Positions 4 through 44,237 of a DNA stretch of 46,398 nt are shown piece after piece (positions within the stretch are counted from its first letter, which is position 1; each line of letters opens with the position of its first letter). The DNA lies in assembly GCA_001512485.1 (NCBI GenBank), contig LFRV01000068.1, positions 6,101 through 52,498 of the forward strand, given 5' to 3'. The notes beneath the pieces are model-generated. The model saw nothing but the letters and a program-made list of their open reading frames with translations, was not told the DNA's origin and made no database searches. A program made the position numbers and the translations under genes. This DNA is from Clostridiales bacterium DTU069. GTDB lineage: Bacteria; Bacillota; Clostridia; DSM-8532.

Positions 4-30
4 GTACGCGGCTCTGGTTCGGGTGCTTTC
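4..30. repeat. Partial copy of interspersed palindromic repeat (end fragment)
   Basis: These 27 bases are identical to bases 44176-44202, in the repeat mosaic near the other end of the window. They carry the CGGGTGCTTTC core that also recurs at about 7100, 7315, 43530 and 43985. The element presumably continues to the left of the window. It ends about 15 bp before the stop codon of spoIIR, which is read toward it. Confidence 0.75.
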
Positions 31-44
31 CATGATGAAGGATA

Positions 45-7036: not shown

Positions 7037-7331
7037 AGGAAACGAAACACCCGAGCGGGATCCCCGGAAATAATGCAATAACCCAGCGGGTGGCTCGGGT
7101 GCTTTCGGTGACGACGGGCGACATGCTTCAGTGCCCTGCTGCATATAAGTAACTGTGGAGCGGGTTGATGAGCGGCCCGGGATATGGAGACCGCTGTGTG
7201 AAAACAGTACCGGAACGGAAGCGTGCTTTCGGTATGTGCTTTGTCGCCCGAGGAAACGAAACACCCGAGCCAGGACCCGCGGAAATAATGCAATAACCCA
7301 GCGGGTGGCTCGGGTGCTTTCGGTGACGACG
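7037..7331. repeat. Palindromic interspersed element, two ends plus 197-bp body
   Basis: An 80-bp sequence at 7037-7116 recurs at 7251-7331 with only a few differences. Each copy is itself a hairpin: CGAAACACCCGAGC...CCGCGG, an 18-base loop, then GCGGGTGGCTCGGGTGCTTTCG. Seen the other way, bases 7086-7282 form a 197-bp unit with imperfect inverted ends of about 38 bp, reaching from GCGGGTGG to CCACCCGC-like GGACCCGCGG and including GGGCGAC/GTCGCCC. A homologous unit of 189 bp lies at 43518-43706. There is no transposase and no convincing ORF. It fills the gap between spoVAE and the DUF4015 pair. It could be a MITE-like mobile repeat or a structured RNA. Confidence 0.8.
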
Positions 7332-43241: not shown

Positions 43242-43320
43242 TTTTTATGCACCCTTTCTATATTTCACGTGTATTTCCCTTTATCCAATTATTTTCAGCC
43301 ATTCTTGATAAATATATTAT

Positions 43321-43497
43321 AACAACGGAAGAAATTGCGCAAGCAATTTCATCACACCGTTACAAGGTTCTTGTGCAAAGCATAAGGTTCTTTTAACAAC
43401 GGAAGAAATTACGCAAGCAATTTCATCACACCGTTACAAGGTTCTTGTGCGAAGCACAAGGTTCTTCTAACAACAGAAGGAAATACGCAAGTAATTT
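43321..43497. repeat. 74-bp tandem repeat, about 2.4 copies
   Basis: Units begin at 43321, 43395 and 43469 (AACAACGGAAG, then AACAACAGAAG in the third). Each full unit has two hairpins: GAAATTGC-GCAA-GCAATTTC and CTTGTGC-GAA-GCACAAG. The stems differ between copies in a compensating way (TGC/GCA in unit 1, TAC/GTA in unit 3, the mismatched TAC/GCA in unit 2). It lies upstream of the DUF4330 operon and next to other repeats. Confidence 0.85.
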
Positions 43498-43517
43498 GAA
43501 TTTATACCGCAAACACA

Positions 43518-43706
43518 GCGGGTGGTTCGGGTGCTTTCGGTGACGACGGGCGACATGCTCCGAAGCTCTGCTGCACATAGGTAACCGTGGAACGGGCAAA
43601 TGAGCGACCCGTGCCTCTCCGTAAATGTAAATCATGATCTGGAGCGTGTTGCCGGTAGGTGCTTTGTCGCCCTAGGAACCCGAAACACCCGAACCAGGAT
43701 CCGCGG
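43518..43706. repeat. Palindromic interspersed element, second copy (189 bp)
   Basis: Homologue of the 197-bp element at 7086-7282: it begins GCGGGTGGTTCGGGTGCTTTCGG, runs GTGACGACGGGCGACATGCT, has a more diverged centre, and ends GTGCTTTGTCGCCC...CCCGAAACACCCG...CCGCGG. Ends are inverted repeats of about 38 bp. Changes in the two arms compensate: here GGTTCGGG pairs with CCCGAACC, whereas the 7-kb copy has GGCTCGGG with CCCGAGCC. No ORF is credible. Confidence 0.8.
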
Positions 43707-43731
43707 AAATATTGTTAAAAACCTGCTCATT

Positions 43732-43934
43732 GAACTATTGTACAATAACGTCAACAGGAGCTTCATTTGCAAGAGCTACACAGTTCAGCTCGGGCAAGTC
43801 GAAACTCGCAAAAATGCTTGGAATATTTTTTTCAGGAAGCATTTTTGCTCAGACAGTCGACTTGCTTATCCTCGCTCTGACTGTATATCTCTATGCTTCA
43901 TTCCGCTATAGTTTCCGTTATTGTACAATAGTTC
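43732..43934. mobile_element. 203-bp fold-back (MITE-like) element nested in the repeat mosaic
   Basis: Perfect 19-bp terminal inverted repeats, GAACTATTGTACAATAACG (43732-43750) and its complement (43916-43934). Inside is a perfect 12-bp hairpin, GCAAAAATGCTT (43808-43819) with AAGCATTTTTGC (43837-43848). The arms between can also pair imperfectly, for example at GCAAGTCGA. A related stretch at 44050-44090 has the same flanks but only a single TATTGTACAATA where this element sits, as if it were an empty or excised site. No transposase is present. Confidence 0.75.
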
Positions 43935-43970
43935 TTCCGAGTAGCCCGTGAGAGTTACGCAGAAAACACA

Positions 43971-44045
43971 GCGGGTGGTTCGGGTGATTTCGGTGACGAC
44001 GGAGAATAATAAAGGGAAACGAAACACCCGAACCAGGACCCGCGG
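43971..44045. repeat. Shortened copy of the palindromic element (75 bp)
   Basis: Has the same two ends as the 189-bp copy (GCGGGTGGTTCGGGTG...GGTGACGACGG and GAAACGAAACACCCGAACCAGGACCCGCGG), but only about 14 bases between them. It looks like an internal-deletion form, capable of a near-continuous hairpin. Confidence 0.75.
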
Positions 44046-44205
44046 GAATATTGTTCTAAACCTGCTCATTGACCTATTGTACAATAGTTCTTTATATGAG
44101 AAACATACAGCGAATTAAAACCGCAAACACAGCGGGTGGCTGACGGGTCGAGGTACTGCTGCCGCGTTCCGGTTGGTACGCGGCTCTGGTTCGGGTGCTT
44201 TCGGT
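44046..44205. repeat. Spacer repeat and two further element ends
   Basis: Bases 44046-44090 resemble 43707-43745 (AATATTGTT...AAACCTGCTCATTGA) but carry one uninterrupted TATTGTACAATAGTTC. A truncated end follows (CAGCGGGTGGCTGACGGG, 44127-44144), then another end (GTACGCGGCTCTGGTTCGGGTGCTTTC, 44176-44202; identical to window bases 4-30). The last lies about 33 bp before the stop of the next glycosyltransferase gene. No gene is supported between 43242 and 44237. Confidence 0.7.
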
Positions 44206-44237
44206 GGCGAAGGGTGAAAAAGACAGGAAATAGTCAG

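What the first reader, a model, noticed from the sequence alone, without database searches (positions are those of the whole stretch)
7037..7331. Family of palindromic elements with compensating changes between arms
Homologous elements with about 38-bp inverted ends occur at 7086-7282, 43518-43706 and 43971-44045, with end fragments at 4-30, 7037, 7251, 44127 and 44176. Arm changes are matched (GGCTCGGG/CCCGAGCC versus GGTTCGGG/CCCGAACC), so the pairing is maintained, either as RNA or as DNA cruciform or transposon ends. No gene of mobility is in the window, and I do not recognise the family.
Basis: partly seen in the sequence, partly recalled or inferred. Interest (0 to 1): 0.65.

Follow-up and report, generated by a model that had tools for sequence, protein, structure and literature searches.

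The report
Mobile modular hairpin repeats in Clostridia
The finding is part of a previously uncatalogued family of roughly 200-letter DNA hairpins that has spread to dozens of intergenic places in this bacterium and, with wholly different but still matching arms, occurs in two other families of Clostridia, so the folded shape itself appears to be conserved.

Summary
The elements are copies of one 196-200-nt hairpin: left arm L, about 110-nt interior m, right arm R. The own genome has about 54 full or partial copies; two congeners have 39 each. Distribution elsewhere in the family is patchy. Arm changes are matched within a hairpin (53 of 58) far better than between neighbouring units (40 of 59). 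Copies sit in modular intergenic arrays with a second hairpin (E2) and an 18-bp palindrome (P). Against an 85%-identical congener, most sites are occupied in both species, but array content differs, about six arrays lie inverted and four sites have no recognisable element.

The key result: two independent covariance models find homologues in two further Clostridia families. There the arms have quite different letters yet still pair, while interior blocks are conserved. Mismatches favour G.U over A.C on one strand. Rfam has no match.

Best reading: a non-autonomous mobile modular hairpin repeat (MITE/BOX-like) whose folded + strand is the conserved unit. Part of the matched arms and the inversions could come from template switching between inverted repeats. 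The mobilising enzyme, target duplication and transcription were not found or could not be tested. RAYT does not fit.

The parts
4..41 (+). left-arm fragment of the variant carrying the extra 'GTACGCGGCTCTGG' stretch, directly after the 3' end of a spoIIR gene on the - strand
   Evidence: the orthologous site in G001 also carries an element in the same orientation
7037..7069 (+). right-arm (R) fragment at the left end of the array
7070..7083 (+). short spacer X (aataatgcaataac), repeated at 7285-7298
7084..7280 (+). complete L-m-R hairpin (core element)
   Evidence: 230.6 bits
7299..7333 (+). left-arm (L) fragment ending the array, just before the stop codon of the SpoVAC/SpoVAEB-family gene on the - strand
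43516..43704 (+). second complete L-m-R hairpin, with a 9-nt deletion in the conserved GGATATGGAGACC core
43733..43750 (.). palindrome P, left copy (AACTATTGTACAATAACG)
43751..43915 (+). second hairpin module E2, about 165 nt, always in the same orientation as the core
43916..43933 (.). palindrome P, right copy
43969..44043 (+). short hairpin: L and R arms with stem 2 and interior replaced by AGAATAATAAAG
44072..44089 (.). palindrome P (single, no E2)
44127..44219 (+). L-arm variant with about 50 nt inserted (CTGACGGGTCGAGG...GTACGCGGCTCTGG), ending the array before the 3' end of a glycosyltransferase gene on the - strand

Best explanation
A family of non-autonomous, mobile, modular hairpin repeats. 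The unit is a hairpin of about 197 nt: a paired arm of about 20 bp, an internal loop (f1: GTGACGAC / TAGGAA; f64: GTGGAG / CGGAA), a second stem of about 8-12 bp, then a conserved interior (TGCTYC...AGCCCTGCTGC, ACCCG-GAtA--GGAGACC and GTATGTGCTT) with one variable loop. Shown: many dispersed copies, matched arms, homologous structures in three Clostridia families with different arms, tandem and modular arrays, recurrent truncation points, inverted or element-free orthologous sites, and patchy distribution. Inferred: copies are spread in trans by a host or transposon enzyme that recognises the folded + strand (RNA or single-stranded DNA); insertion is tolerated mainly in intergenic DNA; arrays are then remodelled by slippage and by recombination or template switching between the inverted arms.
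For: Copies: 67 blastn matches and 54 model matches in the own genome, 39 in each congener. Patchy: G019 has 15 copies but three other genomes of its genus, one complete, have none. Hairpin-specific covariation. Reciprocal detection: R1 (family f1 only) finds G185 at E 3e-7; R2 (family f64 only) finds window:7092-7272 at E 1.8e-10, on the + strand only; both find G413. Arms and stem 2 differ in letters in all three lineages and still pair. G.U exceeds A.C in three sets: 33 to 23 in core arms, 21 to 5 in f64 arms, 21 to 5 in E2. L fragments tend to end at model position 40-46 and R fragments to start at 142-153. Sites without a recognisable element in G001, and inverted arrays.
Against: No clean target-site duplication and no mobilising enzyme found. 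The G.U excess is not significant in the core arms alone (p = 0.23), and 7 of the 21 in f64 are one position. Matched arms and inverted arrays can also arise by template switching (PMC8794818, PMC8604942). No transcript data.
Confidence: 0.6

Rival explanations
1. Ordinary MITE: double-stranded terminal inverted repeats of a DNA transposon, moved by a transposase; the hairpin is incidental and arm matching comes from template switching or gene conversion between arms.
For: Long inverted arms, intergenic dispersal in both orientations, patchy distribution, sites without a recognisable element. Template switching is known to homogenise arms and invert spacers (PMC8604942).
Against: Arms differ completely between families while the interior is conserved, the reverse of a TIR element. 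No target duplication, no related transposase in the window.
Confidence: 0.2
2. A functional host RNA (cis-acting or trans-acting) of Clostridia that has been duplicated many times; some or all copies act as RNA, for example on the transcripts in which they lie.
For: Conserved interior across three families, G.U bias to one strand, and a single sense-oriented copy in an exopolysaccharide operon of a complete genome, G413.
Against: In the own genome copies lie in both orientations to genes, array content at orthologous sites differs or is lost between congeners, and most related genomes have none. The operon copy is one case. No match to the Rfam epsC (EAR) model.
Confidence: 0.15
3. REP/REPIN-type repeats spread by a RAYT (Y1) transposase.
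For: Palindromic intergenic repeats in mosaic arrays; the own genome has one Y1_Tnp gene.
Against: Y1_Tnp was not found in carriers G001 (99% complete) and G002, and is present in many non-carriers. Units are 5-10 times longer than REPs.
Confidence: 0.03

Closest known systems
BOX elements of Streptococcus pneumoniae (PMC3049150)
   Same: Small, modular (boxA-boxBn-boxC), highly paired, intergenic, proposed mobile, no clear empty site with target duplication identified.
   Different: Here the core is a 197-nt hairpin with a conserved interior found in other bacterial families, separate P and E2 modules, and arrays found inverted between species. BOX is over-represented between convergent genes; none of about 29 arrays here is. 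Sequence homology to BOX was not tested directly.
MITEs (including Correia/NEMIS, ERIC)
   Same: Short, non-coding, inverted ends, dispersed, no gene of their own.
   Different: No target-site duplication seen, arms not conserved between families, interior conserved, tandem modular arrays.
BIME/REP elements and REPINs with RAYT transposases
   Same: Palindromes in alternating mosaic arrays in intergenic DNA.
   Different: Unit about 200 nt rather than 20-40; presence does not follow Y1_Tnp.
Large structured RNAs linked to mobile elements in Rfam (HEARO, IS605-orfB, group II introns)
   Same: Conserved fold with variable peripheral loop, many copies in some genomes.
   Different: No Rfam model reaches its threshold on f1 or f64 copies; no associated ORF inside the element.

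Membership tests
MITE | terminal inverted repeats | tested here: met
   arms of about 20 bp plus an 8-bp second stem
MITE | target-site duplication | tested here: inconclusive
   G001 sites without a recognisable element show no clear duplication; boundaries blurred by decay
MITE | parent transposon with the same ends | tested here: inconclusive
   no ORF-bearing copy among the copies examined, but only about 400 kb of the genome was read in full
MITE | dispersed, non-coding, variable occupancy | tested here: met
REP/RAYT | RAYT (Y1_Tnp) in carriers | tested here: not met
   not found in carriers G001 and G002, present in many non-carriers
REP/RAYT | 20-40-nt palindrome | tested here: not met
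   core length 196-200 nt in most copies
BOX | modular hairpin modules in variable number | tested here: met
   L-m-R, P, E2 and short modules
BOX | sequence homology to boxA/boxC | not tested
   no BOX model was compared
Rfam families (all 4227) | score above gathering threshold | tested here: not met
   gathering scan of the whole window; permissive scans of the arrays and of relatives listed only chance-level hits
EAR (epsC RNA) | match to the Rfam model | tested here: not met
   G413 operon copy scanned, no epsC hit

The most novel reading that the evidence does not exclude
The element is a mobile structured RNA of bacteria, in effect a bacterial SINE-like or ribozyme-like retro- or ssDNA element, with a conserved core shared by three families of Clostridia and freely drifting but paired arms. 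It is copied through its folded strand by an unknown enzyme that joins it at fixed points beside stem 2.
Probability: 0.22. Interest if true: 0.85.

Novelty: new variant of a known kind. Interest (0 to 1): 0.58.

Why it matters
Most small palindromic repeats are known from one species or genus and judged only by their arms. Here the interior and the overall fold persist across families while the arms are replaced, which gives a rare handle on what the mobilising machinery recognises. If the folded strand is an RNA, it would be a spreading structured RNA without an ORF or a known helper. It also offers a natural system for arm homogenisation and spacer inversion between inverted repeats, and probably explains assembly breaks in these genomes.

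Tried and rejected
Rfam matches: none, only chance hits such as sul1 at E 1.8. RAYT association: rejected. Viral contigs: exact core patterns gave 0, 3 and 2 hits; the five were rescanned with the covariance model and none is a copy. Phage and plasmid collections: no blastn match. Integron attC: considered, no R/L boxes seen by eye, not tested formally. Internal helices of m by column covariation: confounded by clade structure; only weak helices 4 and 5 retained. R-X-L as the structural unit: less supported than L-m-R. Phylum-wide search with model R2: empty, but uninformative because the sample held no genome with a known match at the filters used. EAR/eps antitermination as function: one operon copy only, no epsC match.

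Full report
Observation. The window is contig C98, 6101-52498, of a 2.55-Mb Clostridia assembly. One hairpin, L-m-R, is the common unit: L = CAGCGGGTGGYTCGGGTGCTTTCGGTGACGACGGGCGACA, R = AGGAAACGAAACACCCGARCCAGGACCCGC, with about 110 nt between. Of 51 full copies, 48 are 196-199 nt long. Folding energy is far below that of shuffles on both strands.

Copies. blastn finds 67 matches in the own genome. A covariance model finds 54 in G000, 39 in each of two congeners, 15 in G019 of another genus (three other genomes of that genus have none, one of them complete), 3 each in G006 and G007, and essentially none elsewhere in the family. This patchiness is what a mobile element would give.

Pairing. 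On 66 copies from several genera, 91.8% of cells in a 39-pair structure are standard pairs. Fifty-seven cells have two-sided changes against 26.4 +/- 3.6 after shuffling, and sliding the partners drops pairing to 31-46%. Permutation z is 6.9 for L-m-R and 3.1 for R-X-L. So the arms of one hairpin change together.

Arrays. Elements sit in modular arrays. Modules are complete cores; short cores whose tip is replaced by AGAATAATAAAG; a left-arm variant with about 50 nt inserted; an 18-bp palindrome P (25 sites in the genome within two mismatches); and a second hairpin E2 of about 165 nt bounded by two P copies and always oriented like the core. Most arrays begin with an R fragment and end with an L fragment. 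L fragments often end at model position 40-46 (GGGCGACATGCT) and R fragments often begin at 142-153 (TATGTGCTTTGTCGCCC). Local-alignment ends are approximate, so the clustering is suggestive.

Position. About 29 arrays were placed against a simple longest-ORF gene call. Both orientations occur. Nearly all are intergenic, often 4-70 nt beyond a stop codon; nine lie between divergent genes and none between convergent genes.

Orthologous sites. In G001 (about 85% identical) 27 flanks were located and read. About 20 of roughly 24 readable sites carry elements in both species, but array content differs. At about six sites the array lies in the opposite orientation (L077:18366, L082:8897, L083:8548, L088:12544, L089:17431, L091:6420). 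At L089:17431 the outer arm is shared and the inside is reversed. The site of window 43516-44209 has only 15 bp in G001 between the aligned flanks, and three more have no recognisable element (L082:16328, L094:8178, L091:15789). I found no clear target-site duplication. Arm homogenisation and spacer inversion are both known outcomes of template switching between inverted repeats (PMC8794818, PMC8604942), so matched arms alone do not prove selection on an RNA.

Other families. Model R1, built only from family f1, finds one further hit among 391 Clostridia genomes, in G185. blastn then shows more copies in G185 and G410, both of family f64. Their arms (ACCGGCGGCGCTGTTT / AAACAGCGCCGCCGGT) and second stem (TGTGTTTCC / GGAAACACA) have quite different letters from f1, yet pair. 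The arms also vary between f64 copies with compensation. Model R2, built only from f64, finds window:7092-7272 (E 1.8e-10) and 43524-43696 on the + strand, and copies in G019 and G007. It also finds a single copy in a third family, G413, which R1 finds too. There the arms are A+T-rich (AATTCAGCTAAT...ATTAGCTGAATT). The shared interior is TGCTYC/AAGAGC...GCTGC, ACCCG-GA...GAGAC(A/C), GTATGTGCTT and GGAA. A caution: because arms are near-palindromic, R2 also scores the reverse strand of its own f64 copies at 34-43 bits. The cross-family hits cannot be explained that way because the arms differ.

Which strand. In a folded + strand G.U is tolerated and A.C is not. Counts are 33 to 23 in f1 arms (p = 0.23), 21 to 5 in f64 arms (7 of the 21 at one position) and 21 to 5 in E2. 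All three lean to the same strand. Cells are not independent, so this is supporting evidence only.

Known families. No Rfam family matches f1 arrays, f64 copies or the G413 copy. Y1_Tnp (RAYT) does not track the element. Nothing was found in phage, plasmid or viral collections. The closest analogue in behaviour is the pneumococcal BOX element: modular, paired, proposed mobile, without a clear empty site (PMC3049150).

Verdict. A real, uncatalogued family of modular hairpin repeats, most likely non-autonomous and mobile, whose folded + strand with its conserved interior is the unit that persists. How it moves, and whether it is transcribed, remain open.

Noticed in passing
window 43733-43933 and L075-L094: Second hairpin family E2 bounded by the palindrome AACTATTGTACAATAGTT; single P copies look like E2-less versions.
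   Followed up: partly
L207:5558-5744 (G413:C1:931557-931743): The only copy detected in a complete genome lies in sense orientation between a glycosyltransferase gene and an EpsG gene of an exopolysaccharide operon.
   Followed up: partly
window 43308-43497: Tandem 74-bp repeat with its own small palindromes (GAAATTGCGCAAGCAATTTC) beside the array, also present in G001.
   Followed up: no
L075-L094 arrays: No array lies between convergent genes while nine lie between divergent genes, opposite to BOX elements.
   Followed up: no
G001 contigs C109, C162, C57, C305: Several contigs of the related assembly end at or close to these elements, so the repeats probably break assemblies.
   Followed up: no
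L175:1-330 (G185:C66): In the second family the tandem spacer contains its own palindrome ATGGTACCAT, a likely counterpart of P.
   Followed up: partly
L187:1493-1708 (G185:C39): One copy has a long extra perfect hairpin in the variable interior loop, the natural place for cargo.
   Followed up: no
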